From NCBI GenBank assembly GCA_030280995.1, contig JASXTE010000004.1, positions 46,104,673 through 46,168,672 on the forward strand: a stretch of 64,000 nucleotides of DNA, read 5' to 3'. Origin of the DNA: Hemileia vastatrix. Its lineage: Eukaryota > Basidiomycota > Pucciniomycetes > Pucciniales > Zaghouaniaceae. The notes under the pieces are model-generated. The model ran no database searches. It worked only from the letters and a program-made list of their open reading frames with translations, and was not told the origin of the DNA. Below are positions 1-41,400 of this stretch, piece after piece. A program made the translations under genes and the position numbers. How positions within the stretch are numbered: the first letter of the stretch is position 1; every line of letters begins with the position of its first letter.

Positions 1-562
1 CTCAATAATCAAAGATTTAGGATTTAGAAATGAATATTGAGAAAATAAAAGAAAGATACAATAACAATGATTTTAGCTTTTAAAGATTTACCACTATTAA
101 TGTAAATACAATTTTATAATTTAATTCTAAGGAAATATCGAACCAAATACCCAACCCCTTTTATATCCTTTGTTCCTCCTCGCATTGACCTCCCTTCCAT
201 CGCACCATTCCCATTCCATTGACCATTACTAACATACACTTAGACCCTCTTCGCTAAATATCCGTCCATGCTCAATTTACCCCTTTTTAATTAATTAACA
301 AAACTTTAATGAAAACTACTACTGTACTATTTTTTTGAACCTAGCGCTGTGCGTCGCTTATTGAAAAGGACTAAGGCACCCTATTGGGAGATTGACTAAT
401 TTAGATTTAGAGTTTAGGCTAGCGCAGTTAAATAGTAAGTACACAAAAGAAAATCGCAGTTGCTATGGAGAATTGCTTTCTGCGCTTCGAGTATAGATTT
501 AGGACTTGATATTATTGATTTAATGAGCTGCTTTCGCCTCAAGTGTCACGTGGCGCGTGACA
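1..562 (-). repeat. Element A 3' LTR (partial)
   Basis: This is the same sequence as 7667-8228. Its inner edge at 562 is the TG... end in element sense; bases 544-562 on the plus strand form the imperfect palindrome tgtcacgtggcgcgtgaca. A TATA-like ATATAAAAGG lies on the minus strand at 157-166. In antisense this LTR faces the Zn2Cys6 gene that starts at 673, so it is the probable source of that gene's promoter. No purine-rich primer tract is visible next to the LTR at 563-580. Confidence 0.9.
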
Positions 563-672
563 GATGCCCGGGTATAAGAATTGCTAACTCCGTTGAGCTT
601 GAGCCATCTTCCCACACTAGTTTCCCTTCTTCTAATAATTTTTTCCTCACTTATTAATTTCTCTTTTTTATA

Positions 673-1437
673 ATGAACTGCCTCACTCCCACACCTACGC
701 CTCCACACCCTAAAGCGGATGGGGGAATGATCACGCGACAGTTTTCACAAACTTGCACCGCTTGTGAAAGCATGGAGTATTTCTGTGTCGAAAGTACAGC
801 GACTCGAGGCCCTTGCCAGAAATGCGAGTTTTGCCGTTGGCGACGAGTGGCGTGCGATGCGTTGATGAAGAACGCAGAGATCGAAAAGCGATTTACCAAG
901 ACCAAGTTTTGGGTAATCCCTAAAACCAAAGAGGTGGTCGAAGACATTTGGGATGTCTCGATTGAAGATGAAAAATCGGTGGGGGAAAATGATAAGGAAT
1001 TAAATAACGAGATCTCAACCTGGGTAACCCAGGCCACGAGTTTGAAGCGAGGTGTCGAGGAAGAGGTCGACGAGTTGGTGGAGGAAGATGAAGATGAAGT
1101 CCCTGTTCCAGGGCGGGCACCCAAGAAACGACGGGTGGTCATCGAAGACGACGAGGAGGAGAGAGAGGCAGAGGTCGAAGTGGCGCCAAGGTTATTTTTA
1201 GAGCCTGACCCCATCTTTGAGGTAAGTTTTAATTGTTATTTTTTAAGGATGAAGTTACTGATGAGTTATGTTTAGACATCAAATACTCTTGAAGAGCCGA
1301 TTGGGGAGCCTGTGCCGGTTATACCAACTGAGGCAAACCCTCCAGCCACGGAAGTAGTTAAAGAACCTGAAGACACCCTGGACCAGGTGTGGTCGAAGAA
1401 ACCTCGTCAAGGACGACGAGTAAGGTTCGCGGAATAG
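673..1437 (+). CDS. Antisense spliced Zn2Cys6 cluster protein gene in element A
   Basis: The gene reads plus, opposite to gag-pol, starting 111 bp from the 3' LTR. Exon 1 is 673-1221, intron 1222-1275 (GTAAGT donor, CTGAT branch-like site, TTTAG acceptor, 54 nt, phase 0), exon 2 1276-1437. Unspliced, the frame stops exactly on the acceptor TAG; spliced, it stays open to 236 residues. Cysteines 28, 31, 38, 51, 54 and 61 give C-x2-C-x6-C-x12-C-x2-C-x6-C, the GAL4-type binuclear zinc spacing, with an extra Cys48. It is followed by a PKKRRV NLS-like run near residue 155 and strongly acidic tracts, as in nuclear transcription factors. Past the TAG at 1435 the same frame stays coding-like to TGA 1597-1599 (KMKRLV end), so the TAG may be a nonsense mutation in a 289-residue protein. 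No frameshift is seen although gag-pol is riddled with stops. DNA binding is inferred from the motif only. Confidence 0.72.
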
Positions 1438-1599
1438 TTATGTGGGGAGGTCGACACAATTATCGACACCGCTTCCTTCGACGTGGCAGAGGAGCTTTTG
1501 GAGATTGGAGAGGTGGTTCCAGTAGGAGAGGAGGAGGTATTTGAGAAATGCAGGAAGGAGATAAGGGTAGTTTTAGAGAAAATGAAAAGATTGGTTTGA
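1438..1599 (+). other. Coding-like extension of the antisense gene beyond its TAG
   Basis: In frame with exon 2, 53 further codons remain open, rich in Glu and Val and ending in a Lys/Arg-rich helix-like segment before TGA 1597-1599. Composition resembles the upstream exons and contrasts with the A/T-biased spacer that follows. Either the gene originally ended here and TAG 1435-1437 is a mutation, or this is 3' UTR that looks coding by chance. Confidence 0.45.
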
Positions 1600-2555: not shown

Positions 2556-5500
2556 TTAAGGTTTTGGTTTTAAAGGATATTTCAAATGAAAAGATTTTAG
2601 GAGTTCAGGGGCGTTAGAAACATTGATGGCTGGTTCCCAGGATGTTTTGTCTGAGTCATTGAGGAAGCCTTCCCATTCCACGAGGTATTGAAGTTTCCCC
2701 TTGTGTATTCTTGAATCAAGGATACGACTTACTTCCCACTCTAGATGATCTTCTACTTTGACCGGTTCTGGAGGGGGTTGGTTCTTGCCCGGGTATATTT
2801 CTAGAGCCAGTTCCAGGAGAGATACATGGAAAACAGGGTGAATTGCCTTCCATTTAGGAGGTAACTTGAGTCGAAATGCAGTTTTAGAGACTTCAGAGTC
2901 AATTTCGAATGGTCCCAAGCGCTTTTCAGCCAGTTTCTTTGATGGTTGTGTTGTTCGAATGTTTCGTGCTTCGAGCCATACTTTGTCGCCTGGTTTAAAG
3001 GAAGGTGCAGATTGTCGATGTTTGTCGGCCTGTTCCTTGTATCTTCAAATCTCTGATTCCAAATTTGTTTTAAGTTCTTCTTGGAGTCATGATATAGTTC
3101 AAAGATAATGTTCCGCAGGATGATTAGTTCCTAAATGGATTGAGTTGAATCGAGGATGTCGTCCATAAATGGTTTCGAAGGGAGATTGTCGTGTTGAAGA
3201 ATGAGTCGAGTTATTATAAGCCAAATTGGCCAATGGTAACCATGTGGTCCAATTGTCTTGTTGGTAACTGACATACATTCAAAGATATTGTTCGAGGATT
3301 TGGTTAACTCTTTCTGTTTGACCATTGGTTTCAGGGTGATAGGCCGTGGAGAGATTCCTCGTGATATTGAGTTGTCGACACAGTTGGGTCCAGAATGTGG
3401 ATACAAACAATGAGCTTCTATCTGAAATAATATCATTTGCTAAGCCGTGTTTAGAAAATACATATTCTAGAAAAAATTTTGACAAATCTTCTGCTGTAGC
3501 AGTAGTAGTGGTTTTAATGAAAATAGACATTTTTGAAAATCTATCTACTATTACTAATATAGCATCAAAATCATTAGACATAGGAAGTTGAGAAATGAAA
3601 TCCATCAATAAAGATTCCCAAGGTTTAGAGGGAATAGGAAGTGGTTGAAGCAACCCATGCTTCCGGTGACGGGGAGCCTTATTCCTATTTCATTAGTAAC
3701 AAGCTTTTATATAGGCCTTGATTTCACTGGTCATACCTGGCCAGAAGAAATCCCTCGCTATTAAATGGTAGGTTTTAGCAACCCCAAAATGACCAGCTAA
3801 TGGAGAATCATGTCGACTGTTGAAAATCCATAATTTTATCTCATTGTTGTCGGGTATGACTACTCTACCTTCAAAGACTAATAGACCTGATTCAATACTA
3901 AATCTTTTGGCCCCTTGCTTTGAGAGTATTTTGTCTTTTATCCCTAAACAATATTTGTCTTTTGACTGAGCTTCGAGGATGTTAGATAGTTGATTTCGAA
4001 AAGATTGAATTGTCATCGAATTAAGTTGATGAGTCGTTAACATTGATTCGTTGAAGATTGATTGCACATTTGCTGGGTTCTTGTCAGCAAATGCGTCCCC
4101 CCGCTGTGGGTAAACGTTGTCCCGACGTGACAAGATATCTGGGACAATGCAGTTTTTTCCTGGGCGATAGGAAATAGAGAAAGAAAATTCAGACAAAAAT
4201 TCAGCCCACCTGGCTTGACGCCTGGTTAACACTTTAGAAGACATGAATTATTTTAAAGCATTATGATCTGTTAAGATTTGAAAAGGAATATCTAGGCTGA
4301 GAAGAAAAGAATGCCATTTTTTAAGACAATGGATAATAGCTAAAAGCTCTTTGTCATGAATTTCATAATTTAATTCTGCGGCTATGAGTTTGCGTGACTC
4401 AAAAGCAACAGGATGAAACAAATTTGTTTCAGGATTTAATTGGGAGATGACCCCTGCAATAGCATAATCGCTCGCATCTGTCTCAACTATTGTCGAGGCA
4501 GAAGGATTGAAATGTCGAAGAATTGGGGCTGTGGTGAACGCTGTTTTTAGTGCTTCGAATTCCTTTCGTGCTGTAGAAGTAAAAACAAAAGGGATGTCTT
4601 TTCTAAGAAGAGAAGTAAGATTGGAAATAGTTTTAGAGTAATCTTTAATAAATCTCCTATAGAAGTTTGCAAAACCCAAAAATCCTTGAAGCGATTTAAT
4701 GTTTTTGGGCTCAGGCCATTCCAGGATTTTCTGGACTTTGTTGTTATCCATGACTAAACCATCAGTGGATAACGTAAAACCCAAAAAATCAATTGATTTG
4801 AGGTGGAATTCGCATTTATTATGCTTGGCGTAGAGACCATGATCTCGAAGATGATTTAGGACCTGTCCAACATGATGAATATGTTCATCTAGTGTTTTCG
4901 AGAATATTAAAATATCATCTAAATAGTCGACTACAAATTGTTCAACAACATCTTGAAAGATATCATTAACAAAAGTTTGAAAAGTTGAAGGTGCGTTACA
5001 TAATCCAAAAAGCATAACTAAATATTCAAAACTACCAAATATAGTGCGCATTGCAGTCAGTGGTTCATGACCTTCTGCAATGCGAATTAGATTTTAAGCA
5101 CCTCTAAGATCAATTTTAGAAAAGAAATTAGCACCATTTAAAAGGGTAAGAAGTAATGACATAGGAGGAACAGGATATGCATTCTTCTTTGTGACTGTGT
5201 TGAGCTTTCTATAGTCAACACACAACCTAAGACTACCGTCCTTCTTTTTTACAAAGAGGACAGGGGAGCCGGTTGGAGATTTACTGGCTCTGATGAAACC
5301 TTTGGCTACATTCTCTGCAATGTAGTCTCGAAGAACTTGAGATTTGTCCTTTGATAAAGAATAGACAGGACCTGCCGGAGGTACTGGGCCTATTAACTCT
5401 ATTTGATGGTCATAGGGTCGATGAGGTGGTAACTTATAGGCCTTGCCGATTGAGAAAACATCGAGGAAATCGTGGTAGATTTCCGGTAGAGTTGATATAA

Positions 5501-6190
5501 TGGCTTCAACGTTGATTTGGTTGTCCTCTTCATCTTCGAGAGAATCTGTCGAGGGGATACCTGTATTGAGAGAGCAGAATTCGATTACTTCGAGGCAATT
5601 TAAATCCTCTTCGAGTGAAGTCATCAAGCTAGAAGGGTTAGCCAATTTCACATTTAGAGAAGGATCAGATGCTTGCAAGTCATCTGGCAGTGACTTGTCC
5701 TCTAGCAGGACGTTGTCAGGAGGGTTGTTTAACTCCCTATTGACCTGCATTGAAGAATCAGAAATATACTTAGATCATGGGGTGATCAATCCCTTAGTCC
5801 AATCAATTTCGGGATTCCAATGCGTTAAAAAGTCATGGCCAAGAATGGTATCGTCCATCCTTGGGGCGTCCAAGACTGATAATTCCCACTCGAAGGGGGG
5901 AAAGTTTGGAAATTTGAAAACCCATAATACTTTCTTACTTACCCAATATTTGGGTTCCTCTGATTCAATCAAATAGATTGGAGTTCGATCTATATCTGTA
6001 AATGTTAGTTGAAGCTTCTCGGCAAAAGATAAACTAACAAAAGAAATTGAAGCTCCAGAGTCTATAAGACAACTGAAGGGGATATGCTCCTTAAAAAGAA
6101 TGAATCTCAAGCGGTTTAAGGCAACTCTAAGACATGGAGGTTCTGTGAACTTGGAGAGATAAGATAGTTTGCTTTGCACACAAGTAAACT
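2556..6190 (-). pseudogene. pol: Element A pol: protease-RT-RNase H-integrase-chromodomain
   Basis: A single minus frame can be followed through the whole region. Protease has DSGAS; the segment ending near 5775 has the ILGHDFLTHWNPEIDW pattern. RT carries YLDD (about 4914-4925), RNase H has TDASDYAIAG, integrase has the HHCC region and DDE context (MDFISQLP, ISDRSSLF, NGQTERVNQ), and a C-terminal chromodomain lies at about 2582-2741 (WEVSRILDS to TSWEP). In-frame stops: TGA 5775, TAA 5094, TAA 4248, TAA 3693, TGA 3279 and three more TGA between 3130 and 3020. I found no frameshift in 3.6 kb. The start is uncertain: no ATG at the protease, and the frame opens at about 6190 just after the gag stop. 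Chromodomains typically steer integration to modified histones. Confidence 0.88.
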
Positions 6191-6195
6191 ATCTA

Positions 6196-7382
6196 CTAGT
6201 TTTTTGACTTCGAACTAGTACCTTCTCTTTCCTTCAACTTTACACAGTCTTCCAACTTGTGCTTACCCCCACAATACATACATAACCCATTATCTGCTTG
6301 TCTCTTCCTCTCAGCTTCTTTAAGTTCCCCATTAGGATCCAGTACTTTGCTGATATCGCCTGGGGTCGAGCCTTTTGGTCGAGGTTTATCCTTTCCCTTA
6401 TTGGGTTTGGATTGAGTCAAGGAGGATTGATTTGGTCGTGGGTGTGAAGAAGGTCCCGATTTAAAATTTAGGCCTTGAGATTTGTTGGCATATCGACGAT
6501 GTTGAAGTCATCCTTGATAAACGCCGTCAAGTTTGAGGGTTCGATCCATTAAATCCGTTAAAGTAGTCATCTTCTGACCGTGAAGATTTAATTGATCTAG
6601 AATCCTCGAAGGAAGTCCTTTCTTGAAATGATACTTAAGGGCAGCATCATTCCAACCTACTCGAGTTTGAAGTGCTCTGAAGTTTGAGATATATTCAGAG
6701 GCTTTACCATTATCACTCATGCAAAGAAAATCAAGTTCAATTTCCGCGTTTTCCGTTTCATTAGGGTCCCCAAACAACGTAAAAGGTTGGTCTTCGAACT
6801 TTTCCCAATTATTGATAATAAGTGGGTTTCTGTCGAAGAAAGCATGAGTAGATAAGGTTTGAATCATCTTGCTGCTTTCCTGGCTAGGAATGAAGAAGCG
6901 TAAATAACCTTTTATCGGTCGCTGTTAAAGGTTGGAGGGTCATTATAGAACAGCAGCTTGCAGGTTTGCAAGAAGGGTCGCAATCTGTCAGGCTGATCTC
7001 CGCCCAATTTGTCAAGAGATTTCATAGAAGGAGTTTTGAGCTTAGATCCCTCTGAAGACGTTGGATTTGAAAGGGTTTTCATGAAAAGTCTCATGAAATC
7101 TTCCAGAGAGTTAGATGGTCCAGGTTCTCAGGATTGACCAGAAGGGTGATTGGCAGGGGCGGATGGTGCCTCTTGAATTGTATCCTCTCCTTCTTCTTCG
7201 TCACTAGAATCCTCGAAATCATGTGGGATGTCTTCTACAGATTGAACTGAATGTTGCCATTCCCTAAGGTTAAGTGGTTCCAAAGAGTGAGTGCGGGAAA
7301 CAGACCTTGTGGCTGTTGGCCTGCCTCTAGCGGGAGCTCTAGTAGTAGCCCCCGTAGGAGGAGTGCCTTGAACAGGTGCCAT
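6196..7382 (-). pseudogene. gag: Element A gag
   Basis: ATG at 7382 opens an acidic, Pro-rich N-terminus. TGA at 7128 and TAA at 6912 interrupt it. A one-base deletion in a Trp codon near 6868 (ARW context) shifts the frame, after which the capsid-like part 6867-6508 reads on to a TGA at 6508 (probably Trp) and then to 6196. The nucleocapsid has CMYCGGKHKLEDC, a C-x2-C-x3-H-x4-C zinc knuckle. Gag would form the particle and package RNA; this copy cannot make a full-length product without several readthroughs and a frame change. Confidence 0.85.
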
Positions 7383-7454: not shown

Positions 7455-8228
7455 TGTCACCGGATGACCTACGCACAAGGTCGAGGATGTTCCTGAAAGT
7501 GAGATGAGGGCTTTAGAAATTTCTTCGAAGCACAGAGGGATGATTCAAGGAAATGGTTCGAAGGTCACTCGAAGTAAGAGCTACAGGTTCGAGGTTTGTT
7601 CGAGAAGAATTATAAACTAGTTTCAAAGGTAATGGGAATTCTTAAGATCTCACGAAGGGTTGGAAACTCAATAATCAAAGATTTAGGATTTAGAAATGAA
7701 TATTGAGAAAATAAAAGAAAGATACAATAACAATGATTTTAGCTTTTAAAGATTTACCACTATTAATGTAAATACAATTTTATAATTTAATTCTAAGGAA
7801 ATATCGAACCAAATACCCAACCCCTTTTATATCCTTTGTTCCTCCTCGCATTGACCTCCCTTCCATTGCACCATTCCCATTCCATTGACCATTACTAACA
7901 TACACTTAGACCCTCTTCGCTAAATATCCGTCCATGCTCAATTTACCCCTTTTTAATTAATTAACAAAACTTTAATGAAAACTACTACTGTACTATTTTT
8001 TTGAACCTAGCGCTGTGCGTCGCTTATTGAAAAGGACTAAGGCACCCTATTGGGAGATTGACTAATTTAGATTTAGAGTTTAGGCTAGCGCAGTTAAATA
8101 GTAAGTACACAAAGGAAAATCGCAGTTGCTATGGAGAATTGCTTTCTGCGCTTCGAGTATAGATTTAGGACTTGATATTATTGATTTAATGAGCTGCTTT
8201 CGCCTCAAGTGTCACGTGGCGCGTGACA
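7455..8228 (-). repeat. Element A 5' LTR
   Basis: In element sense it runs TGTCACGCG...CCGGTGACA, with TGTCAC/GTGACA inverted ends, 774 bp. The right boundary is fixed by the end of homology with the left LTR; the left boundary is inferred from the terminal inverted repeat because the matching end of the other LTR is outside the window. Confidence 0.8.
7823..7832 (-). promoter_or_regulatory. TATA box in element A 5' LTR
   Basis: ATATAAAAGG on the minus strand. It is placed to start transcription roughly 30-40 nt further left, dividing the LTR into a U3 of about 400 bp and a short R-U5. Confidence 0.55.
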
Positions 8229-10478
8229 ATGAGGTATAGCATCATTCAGGAACATTATATCCTGTTCTAATACAAATATCTCATTTTTATCAACACTGTA
8301 AGATATGTTACTTTTTCAATCCTCACTAGATTCCACATTCTCATCTTCATGATTACTAGGTTCAGAATTATGTGAGGTTTCAATAACATTTATTCTCTTC
8401 TTACACGTGTGACCCTTAACCCAAGGTTCATTACATTTGTAACAAGTGTTATTTTCTTATCTCTTAGGGACAAGGGGAGCTGAAGGTTTTTTCTTTTCCA
8501 CTGGTAACTTACTTGTAGTAGGTTTTACCAGGTCAACACTTTGTCTGTATTTACTATACTTGGTTTCATACTTGTGGTTTAATAATATCTCATTGCATAT
8601 ATTAATGAATCCAGAGGTATCTCTGATAGTTTCAGTTCTAGCTACAATAATGTCTCTAACTGATATAGGCAACTTGTATATTATTTTTTCTTTCCACTCT
8701 TCATAATCCATTTTTGGATCCATAGATTTCATGATTTTTATTAAATTCATTAAGAAGACCATGGGTTTATCTCCAGCATTTGTATTATATCTGGCCTTTT
8801 CATACAATCTTTGTTGAGTGATTCTAAATTTTGGGCCACCAAATTGCCTTTCAATTAGTGCCTTCCATTCATTCCAGGAGTAATTAATTCCCTCACTCAA
8901 TACAGATTCAAACCATAATAAGGCCACATCTGTAAATAAAGATATTAACTTTGAAGTAATTTCTTCATCAGGTAGTTTATATGAAAATTTTAAGTTATCA
9001 ATTCTTTGTATGAATTGTTGCCAATCAGATTTTGAATCACCGTCAAAAGAAGGGTACTGATCTAACTTAGGCCAGTTCTTTTGGCTAGTTCTTGCTTCCC
9101 TTACCTGAGGAATATTGAGTAATTCACTTAATTTAGAAAGATGATCATTTATTTCATCTTTTACTGATTTTATATTCTCAGAGCCCATGACACTATGTTC
9201 ATGTTCCATCATTGGTTTATCATCAGAGTGTTTCATGAAAACTGGTACTCTTTCTACATAAGAGATATTATTTTTTATTGTTTCAGTATTTTTCAAAATG
9301 TTAGCTACTTCAATTTCTACTCTTTGTAACCTATATTTTATCACAGGTACATGGGTTAAGGTATCATTTACATTTGAAAAAGACAATTTTACACGTCCCT
9401 CTATGGTGGCCATAATATTCTGAGAATTTTCTAATTTAATTTCTAAATTTTTAATCTCAGAATTTAATCTTTTGTTTTCATTGATCAATTCATTACTTGA
9501 ATTCTCAATAATTTTTAACTTATTGGATGTTGCACTCAATGATTGTGTGATGTTTAATAATACACTTTCCGTATTATTGTTGGACTCTCTAGAGAATTCT
9601 TCCAATTTTTCAATTCTTAATAATAATTTACTAATTATTTTTGATTCCATTGGATTTTCTTTTAGAAAATATTCAATTTTGTCTGTTTCCAATTCAGAAG
9701 ACTCATCATCAGGGTCAAGTTTCAATTCATTTCATTCCATTTTTATATTAATAGTATTTTCCTGGTGATCAATAAAACTGTGTACATTGTCCTCATTTAA
9801 AGAAAAGTCTAACATGTTATTTTCAAATGAATAATTTTTTAAATCCTTATCAATTATATCCAATAACTCTCTATCAATTTCATTACCTATAAGTAATTCA
9901 TTTTTAGGATTATATAATTGATCCTGAGAAGATGGATGACTTACCACGGTCATATTCCATTTCCCCTGCCTCTCCTTGGCTTTCCCCTGTAAGGGTGACT
10001 GCTGGATCCCTGTTGAGGAGGACTGTTGTAGTTTTGGGCATACCAATCCCACTTCCATTTTCTTACAGTTATCTTTTGGTCCTCTTCTGCGACTGGAGGT
10101 GTTGCTGTGGTATTTGGTGCCATTGGTTGTTGATGAGACCTTATATCCACTAGAGCCTGGTTGACTTATATAAAGCCCTGTGCCGCCCTTTTCTCCAGAT
10201 TGTTGATCTGGTCTAACATATTGTTTACTCTTATTGTTAGTGTATTCAGTAGGGTTGAGAGGGAGTGAATTTGCTCTTGTAAGGTGTTTTTGGACTTCCT
10301 TATTGACATTTGTTTTAAGAGCTTTTCCTTTTCCTCCATGGACATTGGTGGGGTGTTGTTTATTGTTACTGGTGATTCTTGACCCTCCATTTGGATTTCC
10401 TGTAACAGGTCTTTCAGCTCTAGTTCTTAAGTTATAAGGCTTTGCCTTATTACTTACAATGTCATTGTTGTCACACAT
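8229..10478 (-). pseudogene. gag: Element B gag
   Basis: The N-terminal part 10478-9732 is open, but homology with E switches between overlapping frames: the YNLRTRAERP start is in one frame, while the coiled coil (about 10390-10166) and the KWKWDW segment (about 10150-9950) are in another, so it contains compensating frameshifts. The main frame 9725-8457 holds a long coiled coil, then the capsid core (WPKLDQYPSFDGDS to RQFGGPKFR). TAA at 8457 precedes the knuckle CYKCNEPWVKGHTC (8403-8444), C-x2-C-x7-H-x-C, a spacing shared with E. Another stop lies near 8310. The sequence toward 8229 should lead into protease but is cut by element A. Confidence 0.82.
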
Positions 10479-11063
10479 TTTTACATGGAATTTTAGAGAA
10501 TTGAAAGTTTAGATATGAAAAACTTCAAAAAGGAGTTTAATCAGTATTTATTAATACCACTGAAGACAATTTTATTGCTTACTTATTGGTATGAAGTGAC
10601 ACTTTAAGTGCCAAAAGTCAAATATGCTTTTATGTGGTCACTTGATTTAACTGGTCTACAATATGTAACTGTGTTTTTATATTTAAAAAAGAAAATTTGT
10701 TAGTAAGATTCTTTCCAAATATTAAATGAATTTTACAAACTAATAAAAAAGGGATTAAGAGTCCTGTAAAAAGAAAACAATTAATCAGTTTAATTGGTTA
10801 TCATCTGCAAAGATCACAAATTTAATTGGTCTATTGACAGACTCCCACTAAGAACAATTATATGTTAAATTAGTGGTAAAATTGATGATTCAATATCACA
10901 ATTTTATTATATAACAGGGCTTCTTTTTCTGAAATCACTATATAAGTGACCCCAACCTGTTGTAATTATCCAAATATTTCTTTAGGGATATTATTTACGT
11001 GTACCTTCTTTGAAAATTTCACTTACTGGATTATAACAGAATTCTTGAGGAAAGGTCCCCAAT
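10479..11063 (-). other. Element B 5' leader
   Basis: AT-rich untranslated stretch between the 5' LTR and gag. In element sense the first bases after the LTR are ATTGGGGACCTTTCC; the TGG within it is where a primer-binding site is expected, but I cannot name the tRNA. No coding sequence is supported here. Confidence 0.5.
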
Positions 11064-11697
11064 TGTCAGGCTAAGGTCAAGTACAAAGACGTGAACTAGC
11101 TTGAATAGTCAGTTGTCTAGAAGATTTTAATAATCCTATATGAATACTGTAGTACTAATTTACTAAGTTGTAAAATTTAATCAAAATTAAAGGTCTCAGT
11201 AATATAATTCTCACTAATTTTATATATGGCTTACAATTTTTGTAGTTGGTAGAAAAATAGATTTTATAATTCAGATACTATTCAAAAGTCTTATAAAAGT
11301 ACTAATTGATATGTATTGTAATTGGTTTGGTTATATTGTGTAAATTGTAAATGATAAAGAATGAAGAAACAAGACCCAAAAACCTCCTCCTTTTATACAC
11401 ACTGAGTTCCCCAATAAATCCCTTGATATACCATCCAATACACAGTTAATTACGCCTCACAACAGCTAATAGACCTTCCCATAAACATCCCTAGTGACAC
11501 ATGACATAATTAGACAAGTAACAACCGCCAAAATACTGTAATAATAAGGGAAATCCATCAAAATTAAAGAAAAAGACAAAAAGAGAGTATATGCTTATAA
11601 AACAATAATATAAAAGACTAAAAGAGACTTTTTAAGGTTAAAAATAGCTTAATAATAAGGGGGATTTACTGTAGAAATAATGGGGCTAATCCTGACA
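11064..11697 (-). repeat. Element B 5' LTR
   Basis: In element sense TGTCAGGATTAG...CTTAGCCTGACA, 634 bp, with inverted TGTCAGG/CCTGACA ends. A minus-strand TATA-like GTATAAAAGG lies at 11389-11398. The outer flank begins ttata at 11698. The partner LTR is not in the window, so the boundaries rest on the inverted ends. Confidence 0.7.
11389..11398 (-). promoter_or_regulatory. TATA box in element B LTR
   Basis: GTATAAAAGG on the minus strand inside the B LTR, the same core as in the LTRs of A and E. Confidence 0.45.
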
Positions 11698-12540
11698 TTA
11701 TACTACGTGAAATTCCCATTCAAAAATAACCAAAATTGACTGAGAAACCACCCAAAAACTTAAAAAAGAGCGTGAGATGTGGGGTAACTAAATGCAGTTC
11801 TTGGCAGGCGCTTTCACGGGTAAATCCTTGACTAAAATTAGGCGAATTTAAGTGTGGTGATGAAATAAAGTGCCAAGAGTGAGGTTATTAATGAAATTAG
11901 TGCAAAAAAACAAGGTCAATACATTATTAATTAAGCTAGGACACTAAATAAGTGCCTGTTGCCTATTTTAGTGTGTTTCCCCACAGTGGGCGTAGAATGT
12001 GGGGTAATTATAGTGTGAAAAAGCTAACTTTGCTAAAAATGAAGCTATTCACACGGGAAAAAAGCAGGCAGTATGTGGCCAGTACACAGAAGCCATTTCT
12101 AGCATAAAAAATTTGAAAAGTGTTATTTTTATGCATTTAAATAGCCAAATCAATAGTTCTAAATGAGCCCAATTGATCTCTCAAAGCGCAATTTTGATAT
12201 TCTCAATTTTATAGCGCATATAGTCAACTTTTAAGTGAAATAAAGCGCATTTCTTGTTTTTTGCATAAAACAATGAATATAACAGCTTTAAGTGTACTTA
12301 AAAATTATGTAGCCTTATACTTAAGGTTCTTAAGATTACCCTAACATATTCCAACTTAATATTAAGTACATAAGACCTATAAAAGGTGGATATATGCGTG
12401 TATATAAGGTGTTATAATGGCATTTTTTGTGTATTATCATAATTTTACTTATGTATACTATTTGTGTACTCTTATTTATTGTTCCCATGTATAGTTCATG
12501 TGTTTAAAATAACTTATAATCACTTTTTACTCAGTCCTGG
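11698..12540. other. Unassigned AT-rich stretch
   Basis: Lies between the outer edge of the B LTR and the first recognisable C0 coding sequence. It has scattered AAGCGCA words and no coding potential I can support, and matches no other part of the window by eye. It may be the target of B, or divergent C0 sequence. Confidence 0.4.
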
Positions 12541-15139: not shown

Positions 15140-16212
15140 TGTGGTCTTCCAACATTGGCAGGGGCCTTTTTTGTGTGATTTGGCACTGTTTGTGCATGTC
15201 TTAATTGACATCTGTTAAGGATTTTGGTATTTTTCTGGTTTTATTCCGTCGATTTAGGTCTGCAGGTATGTGGGTACTATCATTGGATAGCCCTGGATTT
15301 TCTCTATATTTTATGTCTTGTAGACATTTTTCATATTCTGAATTTTAAGGGGTCATTTCCTCATTTTTCATATATAAAAGATTGCTGTTTAATTTTGTTT
15401 TTTGTGTTTTACGGGTTAAATGCTTAGTGCCATTGGATAGAGCTAATGTTTCTCTATATTTCTTGTCTCAATTTTGTTATAGTGAAATTCCGTGTTTTAA
15501 AGGTTTTAGTAGTTGTAGCTAATTTTTCTAAGTAGATTAGTTGTTTTTATTGGTTTTCTGGCTTCAGGGAAGCCAGGCCGCTTCAGGCCGCACCTCTGAA
15601 GTTGGGCGGCCCGCCCGCCTCTATTTTGGAAGGTTGGGGAGCGCTTCAGGAGGGTTTTTTATTTAATTTGGTGGGTACAGGTGCCAGATTAGTGGGTGCG
15701 CATGGGCTCTTAGTTAGTGGTCTGTGTGTACATAGTGAATAAGACAGTTTGGGGCAACCTTAATCATCATACAACCATCTGGAGGTGATATCGTTGTTCC
15801 TCACTCAGTTTTCACTGTTTTCTGGCCACAATTGGCTGTGTTTGTTGCAAGTGAATTCTTCATTTAACTTAACTTTGGCAACTGTTTTCTCTGTTATAGT
15901 CTTTGAAGCTATAGCAAGTATTATTGCTGTCTCTGGTGTGCATTTGCAGCCTACATCAAGTATCTTTGCTGTCTTTGGTGTGGACTTTGTTCTACATTTC
16001 AGTTCTTTGGTCTGGTAGTCTATCTGGTGACTACTTTCTTGGCTCATCAAGTAGTCAAGTGTGTTGAAAAGGGGCTTTAGCAAAACAGGAACCAACTTAC
16101 TTTAGCAAGTAAATCTCATTCTATTTTTCTAAAGGGACAGGGGATTTTCTCCCTGGTTTTTCTCCAACTCCCTTGGTCAAGGCCTATAGCTAGTACTATA
16201 GGATTGTCTACA
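15140..16212 (+). repeat. C1 5' LTR
   Basis: TGTGGTCTTCC...GGATTGTCTACA, 1073 bp. Plus-strand TATATAAAAG at 15371-15380. A GC-rich patch at about 15570-15620 stands out from the AT-rich surroundings. A small 77-codon frame at 15785-16018 is open in all three C LTRs, but this may simply reflect close relationship. Confidence 0.92.
15371..15380 (+). promoter_or_regulatory. TATA box in C1 5' LTR
   Basis: TATATAAAAG about 230 bp into the LTR; C2 has TTTATAAAAG at 57655-57664 in the same place. It would drive gag-pol transcription. Confidence 0.5.
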
Positions 16213-24042: not shown

Positions 24043-25611
24043 TCATTGTCTGGATGATGAAGATTCTGGAGGCTGGTCCGGATTGTGATGACGTTTTTGT
24101 TTTTTGTTGGGATTGTGGGAAGCACTGTGTTCTTTGAAGTGCATCCTGCTGGAGAGATTATAGGGATTGTAATGGTCAGGAATTGGATTAGAGGGAAGTT
24201 CAGAGGAGGAAGAAGAAGAGGCAGGAATGGAGTGCTGGAGGGTGTGCTCAATGATCCTAGACATTTTCCAGTGGTCGTCCAACAGGCACTTTCTCAGGTT
24301 TTTTTCAAAGTCATTCAAAGGTCCATGGAGGGCAAAGGCTTTTAGCATGTTGGAACACATGGTGCTTAGGTGTTTCTTCATGTCTCCATAATCCAGGGTC
24401 AAAGAAGTCTCTAGAGGTTGGCCAACTCCAATAATAGATTCAGGAGGAGGGGTTCCAACTAGAGAAGAAGAATTGGATCAGTAATTATTTTTGTTGAAGA
24501 AATGGGATAATTAATTTGGTACTTACAGATTGGAAGCTCATCAAATTTGTACGCAGATGGAATTTGGATCTCTGACAATTTTGTAATGGCCATAGTGGGT
24601 GGATCAACTAGGGAAAGATATGGATTCTCTTCGTCTCCCTCTGAAAGATTTTGAGAAGGTGAACTAGGAGGCTGATGTTCCTGGGGCCTAGTTGGAGCAG
24701 TGGGATTGTTGTTGTTGTTGTGGTTGTTATTTCTGTTGGATTCAGCTGGAGGAGGTGCTGGTGATGGAGTACCAGGGTTGTTAAAAGATGGAGCAGGAGA
24801 GGGTGATTTGGAAGCAGATTTATCTCTTCTGGATGGAGCTTTTGAAGAGATGGAACTGTCAGAAGAATAGTTGGCTGACAGAGGAGAGGTGTAGTTTCTT
24901 TGTCTTAGTTGGGGACGAAGTTGTTGCTTGGGTGCAGTGTGGGGTGTTCTGGTTTCTTCTTGGGGCTCTCTGGCAGGTCTCCTAGAAGTTTGGGAAAAGT
25001 TGAAGTTATTGGAACTTGGAAGGGTTGGCTGCATTGCTCTGGGAGCAGTGGGAGGTGATTGTTTAGAGTTGGTTTTGTTGATTGATTGAATTTGGCTGTT
25101 TTCTGGTTGTTTTTGGAGATTTTGAGCCGGATTTTTACTGTCCAGTGAGGTGGGCGGGCCGCCTGACATCGACCGGGCCTCCTGGACATGGTCTAGAAGC
25201 CTGGGAGCTGATCTTGAAGCTTTTGGAGCTAATTTGACAGAGATAAAAGCAGTTTCTTGGGAAGCTAAGGCTGGTATTTTGGGAAGAGTTCTGAAGCTGA
25301 GCTTCTGGATCTTCTGAAAGGTTCTGAAGATAAAGAGGAAGAGGAAGGACCAAGCTTTGGGGATCTGGTAGGGGATCTAGAGATGTATTTATGAAAAGGT
25401 GAAGGAAGAGGAATAGGGTGGTTGGCATCTCTGTCACATAATTTCTTTTTGGAATAGCAAGAATCACAAGCCCTTTTGTCGAATTTGGCTTCAGGAGTTT
25501 AAAAATTGAATGTGCAAGGTCTGCACATGTGGATGCAAATTTTGCAGGAAAGTCCTTGGGAGCAGTGAAGCAAGGGAGAGTAGAAGGGTTAACATCAGGA
25601 GATCTAGCCAT
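24043..25611 (-). pseudogene. C1 antisense gene Y: Zn2Cys6-type, spliced, damaged
   Basis: Starts at ATG 25611 (MARSPDV). A one-base indel about 20 codons in and a TAA after CTFNF break it. Read across the indel, the cysteines fall as C-x2-C-x6-C-x15-C-x2-C-x6-C (CKICIHMCRPC, then RACDSCYSKKKLC), a zinc-cluster spacing with a longer middle loop. A long Ser/Pro/Asn-rich region follows. Intron 24459-24526 has a GTAAGT donor and CTCTAG acceptor; splicing keeps the frame into a last exon of 138 codons ending SSSRQ at 24043. Unspliced, the frame stops at the acceptor TAG. The C0 homologue is at 29940-31473. The intron in this strand argues for real antisense transcription. Confidence 0.62.
24459..24526 (-). 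other. Intron of antisense gene Y (C1)
   Basis: 68 nt with 5' GTAAGT and 3' CTCTAG on the minus strand, phase 1. Joining the exons makes a Phe codon and keeps 138 further codons open. In C0 the donor has become GTAATT. Confidence 0.6.
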
Positions 25612-25761
25612 GATCTGTGGTGAGAAAAGATGATGGAAAGGGATAGGAGGAGGCTTTTGTCAGTGATGGGTAGATGATGAAGTGAAGGTGGAAGTTCAGC
25701 AGGTTGGCTGTAGGGGTGGTCTGTATGAAATTAGCTGCATCTATTTTATGCAAAATTCTGC

Positions 25762-26262
25762 CAGTCCATCAAGACTTTAAACTGAAATCTGGTTTCTGCT
25801 AGTCCTCCAAGACTTTAAACTGGCTGGTTTCAAGATTTTATCAAGACTAGTCCATCAAGACTTTAAACTGAACAATGTGTTAGTCCCCCAAGACTTTAAA
25901 CTGAGGGTTGTTGTTGGTTTAGTCCCCCAAGACTTTAAACTGAGGGTTTTGAGTCCCCCAAGACTATAAACTGAGGAAGGAGTTTTTGTTGTTGGAGTTG
26001 GTTTTGAAAGATTGGTGGAGGGTATCCACAGGGGGAGCCTCCGAATTAAGCAAAGGCAAGTTTGGGGGTAATTGATGGGCTGGCAGCTCTGTTTACAATT
26101 ACCCCAGAATGTTAGTTTTTTTCTCTGTGTCTTAATGTGGTTGATCTCTGGTTCTGGGTTTATGATTTAGGTTTTTGAGTCCCCCAAGACTTTAAACTGA
26201 GGGTTTTTGAGTCCCCCAAGACTATAAAATGAGGATGGTCCCCCAAGACTTAAAACTGAGGG
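25762..26262. repeat. Array of AGTC-N6-GACTTTAAACTG motifs (C1)
   Basis: Nine copies of a motif close to AGTCCCCCAAGACTTTAAAC(TGAGG), starting near 25762, 25800, 25848, 25880, 25918, 25949, 26176, 26207 and 26235. Each has an AGTC/GACT inverted repeat. A third stem-loop repeat (26020-26105) interrupts the array. It lies between the antisense genes X and Y. Confidence 0.75.
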
Positions 26263-26320
26263 TTGTTTTGTTGTTACATCCTATAGAGGGTGTGGTCAAT
26301 TTTTCTTTTCTGAATAAAAC

Positions 26321-26960
26321 TCAAGTACTAGTGGAATTACAGAGGGAATCAAGAGATGAAATGAAGTGTTCAGAATTAGCCTTGAACTGGTGAATGAGGT
26401 GTCTTCTGTTCTCAATGTCCAGTGGATCTCTAGCAGGAGTGGATTGAAAGTAGTGAAGCAGAAGTTTTTTCTGTTGAGATGTGTGTTGTTGGAACTTGGC
26501 CTTTATAGTGGTCAAGTGGTTTGGTGTTGGTGGTGCAATGGATCCTACATTGTTATCATCACTATCAGAAGATGGGGGAACTGAGAAGTCATCAGTTTAA
26601 AGTTGAAGGAAGAAATGAAAGTTCTTTACCATCAGATGAACCAGGGATGGTGGAACTAGTTGTTTTATGGGTTGTGGCACTTTTCTGGGAAGGGTGAAGC
26701 TTTTTGATTAATCTGGGTATAAGGATGGATGGCCTAGATCTTTTGGTGCTGGCAGAAGATGGACCAGGTTGAGGTGGAGGTGAATCTGTTGCAGACGATA
26801 GTGGACCAGGTCTGTGGCAGGTCCTCTTTCTAGATTGGCAGACATTGCAGGAAGTTCTGTATGGATGGACAGGTGGTGTCATGGTGCAGATTAAATTATT
26901 GTTGATGCAGTATTGGCAAGGACCCATTTCAGAGGCAGAATTGGGAAGAAGATTGAACAT
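26321..26960 (-). pseudogene. C1 antisense gene X: Zn2Cys6 cluster protein
   Basis: ATG 26960 (MFNLLPNS) lies 48 bp from the start of the 3' LTR and reads away from it. Cysteines 15, 18, 25, 38, 41 and 48 give C-x2-C-x6-C-x12-C-x2-C-x6-C, exactly the spacing in element A. A Ser/Pro-rich linker with KRSRPS follows. Compared with C0, a short deletion near 26597 (PSTLN) shifts the frame; the C-terminal part continues at 26515-26321 (TTIKAKFQQ...IHQFKANSEHF). C0 retains the whole frame. Zinc binding and DNA binding are inferred from the motif. Confidence 0.68.
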
Positions 26961-27008: not shown

Positions 27009-28098
27009 TGTGGCTTCCAACATTGGCAGGGGCCTTTGTTGTGTGATTTGGCGCTGTTTGTGCATGTCTTAATTGACATCTGTTAAGGATTTGGTATTTT
27101 TCTGGTATTATTCCGTGGATATTGGGTCTGCAGGTATGTGGGTACTATCATTGGATAGCACTGGTTTTTCTCTATATTTTATGTCTTGTAGATATTTTTC
27201 ATATTCTGAGTTTTAAGGGGTCATTTCCTCATTTTTCATATAAAAAAGATTTCTGTTTAATTTTGTTTTAGTGTTTTACGGGCTAACCTTAAGTCTTAGG
27301 TTTAAGTGCTTAGTACCATTGGATAGAGCTAATTTTTCTCTATATTTCATGTCACAATGTTGTTATAGTGAAATTCCGTGTTTTAAAGGTTTTGGTAGTT
27401 GTAGCTAATTTTTCTAAGTAGATTAGTTGTTTTTATTGGTTTTCTGTCTTCAGGGAGGCGGGGCCGCTTCAGGCGGCTCCTCCGACGTTGGGTGGCCCGC
27501 CCGCCTCTGTTTTGGAAGGTTGGGGAGCGCTTCAGGAGGGTTTTTTATTCAATTTGGTGGGTACAGGCGCCAGATTGGTGGGTGTGCATGGGCTCTTAGT
27601 TAGTGGTCTGTGTGTACATAATGAATAAGACAGTTTGGGGCAACCTTAATCATCATACAACCATCCGGAGGTGATATCGTTGTTCCTCACTCAGTTTTCA
27701 CTGTTTTCTGGCCACAATTGGCTGTGTTTGTTGCAATTAAGTTCTTCATTTAACTTAACTTTGTCAACTGTTTTCTCTGTTATAGTCTTGCAAGCTATAG
27801 CAAGTATTATTGCTGTCTCTGGTGTGGATTTGCAGCCTACATCAAGTATCTTTGCTGTCTCTGGTGTGGACATTGTTCTACATTTCAGTTCTTTTGTCTG
27901 GTAGTCTATCTGGTGACTACTTTCTTGGCTCATCAAGCAGTCAAGTGTGTTAAAAAGGGGCTTTATCAAAACAGGAACCAACTTACTTTAGCAAGTAAAT
28001 CTCACTCTATTTTTCTAAAGGGGAAAGGGATTTTCTCTCTGGTTTTTCTCCAACTCCCTTGGTCAAGGCCTATAGCTAGTACTATAGGATTGTCTACA
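27009..28098 (+). repeat. C1 3' LTR
   Basis: TGTGGCTTCC...GGATTGTCTACA, 1090 bp, homologous to 15140-16212 with many scattered differences. Followed by CCGG (28099-28102), the second copy of the target duplication. In antisense it is the likely promoter source for gene X. The upstream polypurine tract is decayed (ggagttagga) compared with C0. Confidence 0.92.
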
Positions 28099-29939: not shown

Positions 29940-31473
29940 AAGAAGAAGCATCCGGCGGTTGGTTGGGATTATGTTGGTGTTTTTGCTTTTTTTTGGGATT
30001 GGAGGAAGAACTGTGTTCTTTGTGGTGTAGGCGGCTGGAAAGAGTATATGTATTGTAATGGTCAGGAACTGGATTGGATGGTAATTTTTAGGTAAAAGTA
30101 GAAGAGGCTGGGATGGAGTGTTGGAAGGTGTGCTTAATTATTCTATATATCTTCCAGTGGTCATCAAGAAGGTTTTTCCTCAGATTTTTCTCAAATTTAT
30201 TCAATGGACGATGAAGAGAAAAGGCTTTAAGCATGTTTGAACACATCATACCTAGGTGTTGTTTCATATTGGCTTAATCCAGTTTCAATGTGGTTTCTAG
30301 AGGTTGGCCAATCCCAATTGCAGTTTTAGGAGGTGGGGTTGCAACTAAACAGAAGAATTGTTTCAGTAATTGTTGTCTGTTGAAGAAATTGGATTAATAT
30401 ATTTGGTAATTACAGATTGGAAGCTCATCAAATTTGTAAGAGGCTGGAATCTGGACTATTGAAGTATTTTGAATGGATGTAGTACGAGGATCAACCAGAT
30501 GGACGTATGGATTTCATGGTCATCCTCTAAATGGTGTTGAGAATATGAATTAGAAGAAGGATGTTCCTGTGGTCTAGTTGGAGCAGCCAGTCTGTTGTTG
30601 TTGTTGATATTGTTGCTTGGCTCAGTTTGGTTGGATACTGGTGGTGGAGTACCATGTTGGTTGTAGGATGGACCTGGAGAAGGTGGCCTGAAAGCTGATT
30701 GGGATCTTCTAGATGAAGATCTGGAAGAAATGGAACTTTCAGATTAGTAATTGGCTAGCAGAGGAGAGGTGTAGTTAATTCTTCTTGTTTGAGAGGGAGA
30801 TTTTTGTCTGGGAGCAGTGTTTGGTGCTCTTGTGTCTTCTTGAGGTCCTCTGGCAGGTCTTCTAGAAGTTTTGGAACTTTTGGCATTTTTTGATGAATAA
30901 ATTGTTGTGTTCATTTCTCTGGGAGCACTAGGAGGTTGATGTGTGGTGTTATTGGTGTTTTCTGGCGGAATTTAGTTGTTTTCCAGCTGATTTTGAAGGT
31001 TTTGAGTCTGATTTTTGCTTCCTAGCATGGTGGGTAGGCTTCCTGGACATGGTCTAGAAGCCTGGGAACTGATTTTGAAGCTGTTTTAGCTGAAGTTTCT
31101 GAGATATAGGCTGTTTCTTGAGATGATAAAGCAGGTCTTTTGGAGAGTGTTTTAGGGATAGAGCGGTGTGATCTTCTGGATTGAGCTGAAAATAAAGAAG
31201 AGTAAGCAGGACCAAGTTCTGGGAACCTGGTAGGAGATCTAGAGATGTATTTGTGTGAAGGTGAAGGTGGTGGTATAGGATAATTGGGGTCTCTGTCACA
31301 CATTTTATTTTGGAGTTGCAAGAATCACAGGCCCTGTTATAGAGTTTGGCTTCAGGAGTTGGAAGAGCAAAAGCGCAAGGTCTGCACATGTGGATACACT
31401 GTTTGCAAGCACAGCCCTTGGGAGCAGTGAAACAAGGAAGGTCTGATGGGTCAAAATCTGGAGATCCAGCCAT
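29940..31473 (-). pseudogene. C0 antisense gene Y: Zn2Cys6-type
   Basis: ATG 31473 (MAGSPDFDPS). The open frame gives cysteines at 23, 26, 33, 49 and 52 plus one 6 residues on after a one-base correction (CKQCIHMCRPC then RACDSCNSK), i.e. C-x2-C-x6-C-x15-C-x2-C-x6-C, with extra Cys14, 21 and 30. A frame change near 31312 follows, and the Ser/Pro-rich middle and last exon are recognisable by homology to C1 but carry stops. The intron donor has mutated to GTAATT near 30413. It was probably an active gene in the ancestor; this copy is decayed. Confidence 0.58.
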
Positions 31474-31625: not shown

Positions 31626-32060
31626 AAGTCTGTCATGACTCTAGACTGAACACTGTGGGAAGTCTTTCAAGACTTTAAAATGAACACTATGTTTAGTCCA
31701 TAAAGACTTTAAACTGAGAAATGGTATAGTCCCCCAAGACTATAAACTGAGGATGGTTTGATGGTTGAGTCCTTCATGACTATAAACTGGTAATATGATT
31801 TTGGTGTGACTCTGTCAGAGGGCATCCGAAGAAGGAGTCTTTGAATTTAGTTAAGGCATGTGTGAGGGTAACTGATGAGCTGGCTGCTCTTTAGAACAGT
31901 TACCCAAGAATTTTAGTTTGTTTTTATAGTCTTTAATGGTTTTATCTCTGGTTCAGTCTTAACAATTTAGGTTTTGAGTCCCCCAAGACTAGAAAATGAG
32001 GGCTGTTAGTCCCCCAAGACTTTAAACTGAGGATGAGTCCCCCAAGACTGTAAACGGAGG
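31626..32060. repeat. Array of AGTC...GACTTTAAACTG motifs (C0)
   Basis: Eight degenerate copies (near 31626, 31660, 31692, 31725, 31766, 31976, 32007 and 32034) and a stem-loop repeat at 31818-31905, in the same order as in C1. The copies are more diverged than in C1. Confidence 0.7.
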
Positions 32061-32172
32061 AATTTCTTATGATTGGCTACATTCAGGAAGTCTGGAGAGT
32101 GGTCAAGAATTTCATTTCTATGTCAAAAAAAAAGTTCAATCAAAATTCAAGTGGCAGAAGAGAATCAAGAGA

Positions 32173-32775
32173 TTAAACAAAGTTTTCAGCATTAGTCTTG
32201 AACTGGTGGATGAGGTGTTTCCTTTCCTCAAGTTCCTGTTGATTTATAGAAGGAGTGGATTGGAAGTAGCTTAGTAGAAGGTGTTTTTGTTCTGAGGAGT
32301 TTTGTTGGAACTTGGCCTTAATGGTGGGCAAGTGGTTAGGTGTTTGTGGTTCAATAGATCCTACATTCTCATCATCACTGTCATAAGATGGAGGAACTAA
32401 GAAGTCGTCAGTTTTAAAAGTAGAAGGAAGGAATAAAAGTTTTTTAATATCAGATGGACCAAGCATGGCAGAGGTGGTTTCTGTATTGGTTTTGGAACTC
32501 TTATTTGAAGGATTTAGTTTGTTGACTAATCTGGGTGTCAGGATGGATGGTCTGGATCTTTTGGTACTGGTGGAAGATGGACCAGGTTGAGGTGGAGGTG
32601 AAGCAGTTGAAGATGATAATCGTCCAGGTCTAAAGAAAGTCTTCTTTCTGGATTGGCAGACATCACAGGAGGTTCTGTATAGATGAGCTGGTGTGATGGT
32701 GCAGATTAGATTGTTGTCAATGCAGTATTGGCAAGGGCCCATGTCAGAGGAAGATTTTGAAAGTAAGCTGAACAT
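32173..32775 (-). CDS. C0 antisense gene X: Zn2Cys6-like protein, uninterrupted frame
   Basis: ATG 32775 (MFSLLSKSSS) lies 48 bp from the 3' LTR start at 32824; 200 codons without interruption. Cysteines 15, 18, 25, 37 and 40 are present, but the sixth ligand position is Phe (RKKTFF), so the cluster is probably not functional. A Ser/Pro-rich linker with KRSRPS, a region with SYDSDDENVG, and a C-terminal helix-like segment (KHLIHQFKTNAENF) follow, all shared with C1. The frame extends upstream into the LTR but that part is not conserved. It is odd that the older copy has the better preserved frame. Confidence 0.6.
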   Translation of the reverse strand: MFSLLSKSSSDMGPCQYCIDNNLICTITPAHLYRTSCDVCQSRKKTFFRPGRLSSSTASPPPQPGPSSTSTKRSRPSILTPRLVNKLNPSNKSSKTNTETTSAMLGPSDIKKLLFLPSTFKTDDFLVPPSYDSDDENVGSIEPQTPNHLPTIKAKFQQNSSEQKHLLLSYFQSTPSINQQELEERKHLIHQFKTNAENFV

Positions 32776-38400: not shown

Positions 38401-39000
38401 CTGGTTTTAATAATTTTCTGGGGGGGGAAATCTTAAATTTTCTCTTCCCCTTCATCCCCATTGTGAAGCATTGGTTTGAAGGATCCAATTTTATGCCATA
38501 CTTGGTTAAAATATCATTTCCTAAATAAAACAACTGCTTAAGTTATAATTTTTCATGAAATAAAAATCACATATAGCTCTTAAAAAACCATGGTTATTTT
38601 TGAAAAACACTGTGGCTTTGTATTTACCAATGGGGGACAAAACAGAGCCATAACCTCTCCCATTTTCAGAAATAATAGGCATAAGTTTTGATTTATAATC
38701 TTGGTCCACTGAAGCAAGTGCTTTTTCAGATACTACACTTCCTCCAGCTCCAGAATCCAAAACAACCTCAATGTTGGTTCCATTGACCAAGACTGGTGCC
38801 TTGTGAGGGGCAATAAAAATTGAGCTATCCTTAAGGTTTTTTATGATCTCAGAATCTTCTACTGTAGATAAATCATTATTCTCAATATTAATAGTAGTTA
38901 AATAATGAATATCCTCTTCCATCATCAAAACTTCCTGCTGAGATTCATATGAAATATTGCTGGCACAATCACTTGAGGTATTATCCAGTGCTAATGTGTC
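35422..39000 (-). pseudogene. pol: Element E pol: protease-RT-RNase H-integrase
   Basis: Protease VVLDSGAGGS at about 38757. A frameshift near 38530 leads into FYLGNDILTKYGIKLDP and the RT (CGDYRALNTYTVDDIYPLP); a further shift near 37880 leads into MDGNKGYHQVPVEK with YIDD at about 37689-37700. Stops near 37437, 37306 and 37122 follow, then RNase H and integrase are open from 37103 to 35778 (441 codons): zinc region (HIDIFAGHF, SCDSCQKSKR), NMDFLTGLP, ISDRDPKF, and HPQTDGLAGRMIQT, where the catalytic Glu is replaced by Gly/Arg context. A final frame change leads to the C-terminal domain 35718-35422 ending in a basic RRGRPKK run. Confidence 0.87.
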
Positions 39001-41204: not shown

Positions 41205-41400
41205 AGGAGAACTTACAGAAGAAGCTTCATCATAATCAATTAAGTCCAGCTCCTTAATACCGCCAGCAGAAGCACCTTGATCAGTCAGAGTGTAGTTTAA
41301 CCTGAGCTGAAAGAAAGAAATATTAAGAATTAATTAGTTATTATTTTTGCTTTATTTAAAGAAAAAAAAGAAAAAAAAAATCTACTATATAATTAATTTT

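What the first reader, a model, noticed from the sequence alone, without database searches (positions are those of the whole stretch)
673..1599. Intact spliced antisense Zn2Cys6 gene inside a Gypsy retrotransposon (element A)
Seen: an open plus-strand gene opposite to gag-pol, with a 54-nt intron whose removal keeps the frame, C-x2-C-x6-C-x12-C-x2-C-x6-C, a PKKRRV NLS-like motif and acidic tracts. Gag-pol of the same copy has about a dozen disabling changes, while this gene has at most one stop, late in the frame. Known: GAL4-type clusters bind DNA; HTLV-1 HBZ is a spliced antisense nuclear factor made from the 3' LTR. Inference: an element-encoded antisense regulator.
Basis: partly seen in the sequence, partly recalled or inferred. 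Interest (0 to 1): 0.87.

Follow-up and report, generated by a model that had tools for sequence, protein, structure and literature searches.

The report
Selected antisense zinc-cluster gene in retrotransposon
Inside a hugely copied jumping element of a rust-like fungus lies a second gene written backwards, with its own intron and a conserved six-cysteine (zinc-type) motif, which natural selection has kept working, and a second, different element family in the same genome carries genes of the same kind in the same place.

Summary
Element A is a chromodomain Gypsy element with gag-pol on the minus strand. Between pol and the 3' LTR lies a plus-strand gene: TATA-like box 573-578, ATG 673, exon 1 673-1221, intron 1222-1275, exon 2 from 1276. 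This copy's stop at 1435-1437 is private. In 30 genomic copies the splice signals are always kept although intron length varies (54-73 nt); the spliced frame is open for >=290 codons in 18 of 30, the unspliced in 0 of 30. Changes shared by copies are mostly silent (corrected nonsynonymous/synonymous 0.105 exon 1, 0.246 exon 2, the latter outside the query); private changes much less so (0.59, 0.72). The six motif cysteines are kept in 29-30 of 30 copies, a bystander cysteine in 18. A second Gypsy family (B) has two more antisense six-cysteine genes at the same place, one with an intron, also constrained. Best reading: an element-encoded nuclear DNA-binding regulator; expression and function are inferred. 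GAL4-family membership is not supported. Antisense genes at this site are a known kind (Grande, Retand, Boty); this is a new variant.

The parts
1..562 (-). 3' LTR of element A (window starts about 6 bases inside it)
   Evidence: 1-566 matches 7667-8231 at 99.47%; edge read
544..562 (.). 19-bp inverted repeat at the LTR edge, candidate binding site (inference)
   Evidence: sequence
573..578 (+). TATA-like box of the antisense gene
   Evidence: TATAA kept in 27 of 30 copies
673..1221 (+). exon 1 of the antisense gene
754..855 (+). six-cysteine cluster
1222..1275 (+). intron, 54 nt here, 54-73 nt in 30 copies
1276..1437 (+). exon 2 up to this copy's private stop
1438..1599 (+). rest of exon 2, still in frame, beyond the private stop
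2556..3044 (-). 3' end of pol with chromodomain
2556..7382 (-). gag-pol of element A, several stops and frame breaks
7661..8228 (-). 5' LTR of element A
26357..26960 (-). family B copy B1, antisense gene 1 (six cysteines 26817-26918), frame broken near 26598
32176..32775 (-). family B copy B2, antisense gene 1 (last cysteine lost)
31057..31473 (-). family B copy B2, start of antisense gene 2 with six cysteines 31300-31407
24043..25611 (-). family B copy B1, antisense gene 2 (start region frameshifted)
24459..24526 (-). intron of antisense gene 2 in B1, 68 nt

Best explanation
Element A carries a real accessory gene, coded antisense to gag-pol between pol and the 3' LTR. Shown by comparison of copies: it codes for protein on the plus strand, its intron must be removed to read exon 2, and the protein was kept while the elements multiplied. 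Inferred: RNA polymerase II starts at the TATA-like box just inside the 3' LTR and reads away from the LTR; the mRNA is spliced; the protein (290-299 residues in the 18 open copies of 30) enters the nucleus by its PKKRRV motif, folds a zinc cluster with its six cysteines, and binds element DNA at or near the LTR edge through the basic second half, with the acidic tracts as effector region. It would control the element's own transcription (first choice) or its chromatin targeting, in a way that favours the copy that makes it. Antisense placing also explains how an intron survives in a retroelement: the genomic sense RNA does not show the splice sites, so the intron passes through reverse transcription, as in laboratory retrotransposition indicator genes (recalled).
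For: Splice signals in 30 of 30 copies, intron 54-73 nt, spliced frame open >=290 codons in 18 of 30 and unspliced in 0 of 30. Shared changes 73 silent: 28 not in exon 1 (ratio 0.105) and 33: 28 in exon 2 plus tail, outside the query (0.246); private 0.587 and 0.724; other plus frames 1.13-2.13 for shared changes. No indel in exon 1, 2 in exon 2, 24 in the intron. Six motif cysteines in 29-30 of 30 copies against 18 for a bystander; basic APKKRRVV exact in 26 of 30. Same layout in family B: 30 of 30 sampled copies antisense beside the LTR, gene 1 dN/dS 0.368, gene 2 exon 2 pN/pS 0.28 with an intron.
Against: No transcript, no binding data, no structure (model pLDDT 40). No Pfam zinc-cluster match for A; no homologue in the protein collection. 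Copies were picked by protein score, which lowers exon-1 ratios; a sample picked otherwise was never obtained. The complementary minus frame also shows low shared ratios, 0.188 and 0.31. A and B proteins show no homology in sequence. Pol under the same count is also constrained (0.362), so constraint itself does not say what the protein does.
Confidence: 0.55

Rival explanations
1. The protein is real but works on RNA or cDNA, not on promoters: a Rev-like export factor or a zinc-knuckle-like chaperone of the element's genome.
For: Small cysteine cluster plus basic patch suits nucleic acid of any kind; no DNA-binding family match for A.
Against: The element's gag has its own CCHC knuckle (read by eye); nuclear-type motif and acidic tracts fit a DNA-bound regulator better.
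Confidence: 0.27
2. A host zinc-cluster gene captured by the element, with little or no role in it.
For: Cysteine spacing as in fungal zinc-cluster proteins; retroelements can capture genes (review passages).
Against: 6854 and 14904 candidate places, fixed place and selection inside the element; an intron-bearing gene in antisense is not what capture of a spliced mRNA in sense would give.
Confidence: 0.08
3. The antisense RNA, by pairing with gag-pol RNA or feeding small RNAs, is what matters; the protein frame is incidental.
For: Antisense RNA effects are proposed for plant elements (review passages).
Against: Silent-site pattern, intact frame and cysteines are those of a protein; the 5' UTR diverges like third positions.
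Confidence: 0.04
4. The coding frame is the overlapping minus-strand ORF 654-1235 and the plus frame is its shadow.
For: That frame is nearly open in exon 1 (8 stops over 30 copies against 4) with shared ratio 0.188.
Against: Of nine shared exon-1 changes silent in only one of the two frames, eight are silent in plus and one in minus (p = 0.039); the intron and its length changes make sense only in plus; codon-usage score positive only in the plus frame.
Confidence: 0.02
5. Chance open frame.
For: Length alone: 6.9% with the same composition.
Against: Everything.
Confidence: 0.01

Closest known systems
Antisense additional ORFs between pol and 3' LTR of plant Gypsy elements (Grande gene23, RIRE2, Retand TRP28, PvRetro13)
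   Same: Place, strand, presence in many copies; own promoter and nuclear product reported for Grande gene23; predicted DNA binding for Retand TRP28 (passages of PMC7264820 and PMC11963269)
   Different: Different protein (six-cysteine cluster), intron shown by comparison, selection measured within the family, fungal chromovirus
brtn of Boty-like elements, Botrytis cinerea (Zhao et al. 2011; paper itself not seen, only citing passages)
   Same: Fungal Gypsy element with an antisense extra gene
   Different: Cannot be compared in sequence here; host is an ascomycete, this one probably a rust
HBZ of HTLV-1
   Same: Spliced antisense nuclear-type factor coded at the 3' end (HBZ facts from the passages and recall)
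   Different: No bZIP match; promoter-like box lies inside the element, outside the LTR; no kinship claimed
Fungal Zn(2)-Cys(6) binuclear cluster, PF00172 (GAL4 type)
   Same: Spacing of the six cysteines; basic residues in one half
   Different: Basic half comes second; no match for A, below cut-off half match for B

Membership tests
Antisense aORF between pol and 3' LTR | between pol and 3' LTR, antisense to gag-pol | tested here: met
   LTR edge beside the gene in 30 of 30 A copies
Antisense aORF between pol and 3' LTR | present in many copies, not a single capture | tested here: met
   6854 candidates, 150 of 150 scored match full length
Antisense aORF between pol and 3' LTR | transcribed antisense | not testable with these tools
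   no RNA data at hand
GAL4-type Zn2Cys6 (PF00172) | cysteine spacing C-x2-C-x6-C-x5-12-C-x2-C-x6-8-C | tested here: met
GAL4-type Zn2Cys6 (PF00172) | Pfam profile at curated cut-off | tested here: not met
   A: none at E<=1; B best 18.6 of 21 bits
GAL4-type Zn2Cys6 (PF00172) | basic residues between second and third cysteine (pattern recalled) | tested here: not met
   basic residues lie in the second half in A and B
GAL4-type Zn2Cys6 (PF00172) | zinc binding and DNA binding | not testable with these tools
   model unusable
HBZ | bZIP domain | tested here: not met
   no such Pfam match
HBZ | promoter in the 3' LTR | tested here: inconclusive
   TATA-like box 11-16 bp outside the LTR; start site unknown
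HBZ | spliced antisense message | tested here: inconclusive
   intron required by comparison of copies; no RNA seen
brtn of Boty | sequence homology with brtn | not testable with these tools
   brtn sequence and paper not held

The most novel reading that the evidence does not exclude
Gypsy elements of a giant rust-like genome run on a dedicated antisense regulatory layer: at least three antisense genes in two families encode a half-swapped six-cysteine zinc cluster that recognises the element's own LTR edge, and this self-regulation, kept by selection through thousands of insertions, helped drive the genome to about 750 Mb.
Probability: 0.25. Interest if true: 0.9.

Novelty: new variant of a known kind. 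Interest (0 to 1): 0.72.

Why it matters
Antisense extra genes of LTR retrotransposons have been noted for years with their roles undetermined (review passages). Here one can be shown, by comparing copies, to code for protein, to need splicing and to be under selection inside the element, and a second family has the same layout. That makes the open question of what such genes do directly testable, gives a natural example of an intron that survives retrotransposition because it lies antisense, and points to a regulator in elements that inflate a fungal genome.

Tried and rejected
Chance ORF: rejected. Coding frame on the minus strand: disfavoured. 'Gag-pol dead but gene intact' as an argument: rejected as weak. 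A second intron that would remove the stop at 1435-1437: looked for by eye, nothing convincing; the stop is private. Homologues elsewhere: none at E<=1 for A (390 candidates) or B gene 1 (161 candidates), although the collection holds rust proteins. Solved structures: three weak hits for A, E 1.3-1.9, none for B1 gene 1. Structure prediction: pLDDT 40, not used, no fold search made. A-B sequence homology: not shown. Rust transposon paper PMC12210899: passages only; the words antisense, additional ORF and zinc finger do not occur in its main text. Literature searches for such a gene in fungal LTR elements: (listings of open-licence papers) showed none; subscription papers are not covered.

A sample of copies picked by the chromodomain, hence free of exon-1 bias, was asked for 29 times; the machine was busy every time. 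Exon 2, outside the query, is the least biased test that I have.

Full report
What is there. The window starts about six bases inside the 3' LTR of a Gypsy element (element A) whose gag-pol runs on the minus strand; positions 1-566 match 7667-8231 at 99.47%. Pol ends at 2556 with a chromodomain, so this is a chromovirus-type element. Its pol frame holds nine in-frame stops between 6188 and 2559 in this copy. Between pol and the 3' LTR, on the plus strand, lies the gene of the finding: TATA-like box 573-578, ATG 673, exon 1 673-1221, intron 1222-1275, exon 2 from 1276. The organism names shown in the 120 listed relatives of the element's reverse transcriptase are all the rust Austropuccinia psidii (best 64% identity), so the host is probably a rust; its genome is held as 747.6 Mb in 791 contigs, unnamed.

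Is it more than chance? The spacing C-x2-C-x6-C-x5-16-C-x2-C-x5-9-C occurs three times in the six frames of 64 kb and never in 30 simulated windows; all three lie in antisense genes of Gypsy elements. A strict fungal intron motif (GTRAGT, CTRAY branch, YAG, 45-80 nt) occurs once on each strand: at 1222-1275 in this gene, and at 24459-24526 on the minus strand in an antisense gene of another Gypsy family. Open-frame length alone is not decisive: 6.9% of 4000 simulated 765-nt stretches of the same composition reach 205 codons.

Copies. The exon-1 protein found 6854 candidate places; the 150 that were scored match over full length at 93-100% identity, and 135 of the 150, by my count of the table, have no stop in exon 1. 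They were chosen by protein score, so exon 1 is biased towards conservation; exon 2 was not in the query. In the 30 fetched copies the LTR edge, ATG, donor, branch motif and acceptor are all present; the box reads TATAA in 27 of 30. Intron length is 54 (12 copies), 55 (15), 62, 71 and 73 nt (one each); the spliced frame is open for at least 290 codons in 18 of 30 copies, the unspliced frame in none. The stop at 1435-1437 is private to the window copy. Four copies have a stop in exon 1, ten in exon 2 or the tail.

Selection. Changes shared by at least two copies are 73 silent to 28 not in exon 1 (site-corrected ratio 0.105) and 33 to 28 in exon 2 and tail (0.246); private changes are 20 to 43 (0.587) and 16 to 40 (0.724); the two other plus frames give 1.13-2.13 for shared changes. 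Gap events against the window copy, summed over copies: none in exon 1, two in exon 2, 24 in the 54-nt intron, about 320 in positions 1640-1900. Between gene subfamilies G1 and G3 the 5' UTR differs by 19.1% and exon-1 codon positions 1, 2 and 3 by 3.9, 2.0 and 19.7%. So the protein was kept while the elements multiplied and decays after insertion. LTR pairs of 16 of 20 copies differ by 2.3% on average, 0.35-6.7% (four had no 5' LTR in the fetched stretch).

Strand. One minus frame of exon 1 is also nearly open and shows a low shared ratio, 0.188 (0.31 in exon 2), as expected of a frame whose third positions fall on those of the plus frame. Where the two disagree, eight shared exon-1 changes are silent only in plus and one only in minus (p = 0.039); the intron decides for plus.

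Cysteines. Residues 28, 31, 38, 51, 54 and 61 are cysteine in 30, 30, 30, 29, 30 and 30 of 30 copies; the seventh, residue 48 in the linker, in 18 of 30. That picks out the six-cysteine cluster from a bystander. The APKKRRVV stretch is exact in 26 of 30. Pfam gives no zinc-cluster match for element A: none for the window copy, none for four other copies. In family B the match is below cut-off (best 18.6 of 21 bits) and runs from the protein's first half to the profile's second half. In both families the basic residues sit in the second half; I read this as a half-swapped GAL4-like cluster (inference).

Second family. Family B (gag-pol on plus, LTR 15140-16212 and 27009-28098) has minus-strand genes at the same place. 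Gene 1: B1 against B2, both in the window and so picked by no query, gives dN/dS 0.368, mismatches 35/25/56 by codon position and no stop in 198 codons; the five other frames give 0.51-1.70 with 10-26 stops. Genome-wide there are 14904 candidates, 150 scored. Of 30 fetched copies 30 lie antisense beside an LTR match; in the 20 whose match begins at LTR base 1-5 the ATG is 50-58 nt from the edge, in the other 10 only inner LTR parts matched and the distance is extrapolated. Shared ratio 0.496, private 0.96, weaker, many copies being decayed. All six cysteines stand in 7 of 7 copies that I took, by eye, as B1-type, fewer in the other 23. Gene 2 has a six-cysteine stretch in B2 (31300-31407), an intron 24459-24526 in B1 whose removal joins two open frames, and a second exon with pN/pS 0.28 and mismatches 29/14/55; against it, B2's donor is altered, B2 has two stops in that exon, and B1's start region is frameshifted; its complementary plus frame gives 0.46 with stops in both copies.

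Mechanism. Shown: coding, splicing by comparison, selection within the element, fixed place. Inferred: transcription from the TATA-like box, nuclear entry, zinc binding, binding near the LTR edge, where a 19-bp inverted repeat (544-562) stands beside the box, and control of the element's own expression. The antisense layout lets the intron survive reverse transcription (logic of retrotransposition indicator genes, recalled).

What is known. [quoted passage not shown]). Botrytis Boty carries the antisense gene brtn (citing passages in PMC7264820, PMC8365987 and PMC4227169; the original paper not seen). None of the passages or listings that I saw describes a six-cysteine, spliced, selected antisense gene in fungal elements. 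Verdict: a real, selected gene; new variant of a known kind.

Noticed in passing
48150-56440: Tandem array of a satellite with a unit near 608 bp, about 65-90% alike between units.
   Followed up: no
8229-12400: Element A seems to sit inside another Gypsy-like element (gag-like ORF 8457-9731, minus), a third family also seen at 35778-41333; the six-cysteine scan found nothing there.
   Followed up: partly
42965-44276: Plus-strand ORFs that read by eye like an SNF2-type helicase, possibly a host gene; not searched.
   Followed up: no
L001-L030, exon 1 against pol pieces L031-L050: Silent divergence between copies is about 0.21 in exon 1 and 0.14 in exon 2 but 0.055 in pol of mostly the same copies: the gene end of the element looks older than pol, perhaps by template switching between subfamilies.
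   Followed up: partly
L008, L014, L016 introns: Intron length variants of 73, 71 and 62 nt (a long T run in L008) with splice signals kept: a natural series for splicing checks in RNA-seq.
   Followed up: partly
25700-26330 and 31700-32160, minus strand: Repeated stretches between antisense genes 1 and 2 of family B (reading like SLGGLK / KSWGT in translation).
   Followed up: no
544-562: Inverted repeat TGTCACG-N5-CGTGACA exactly at the LTR edge next to the antisense TATA-like box; varies somewhat between copies.
   Followed up: partly
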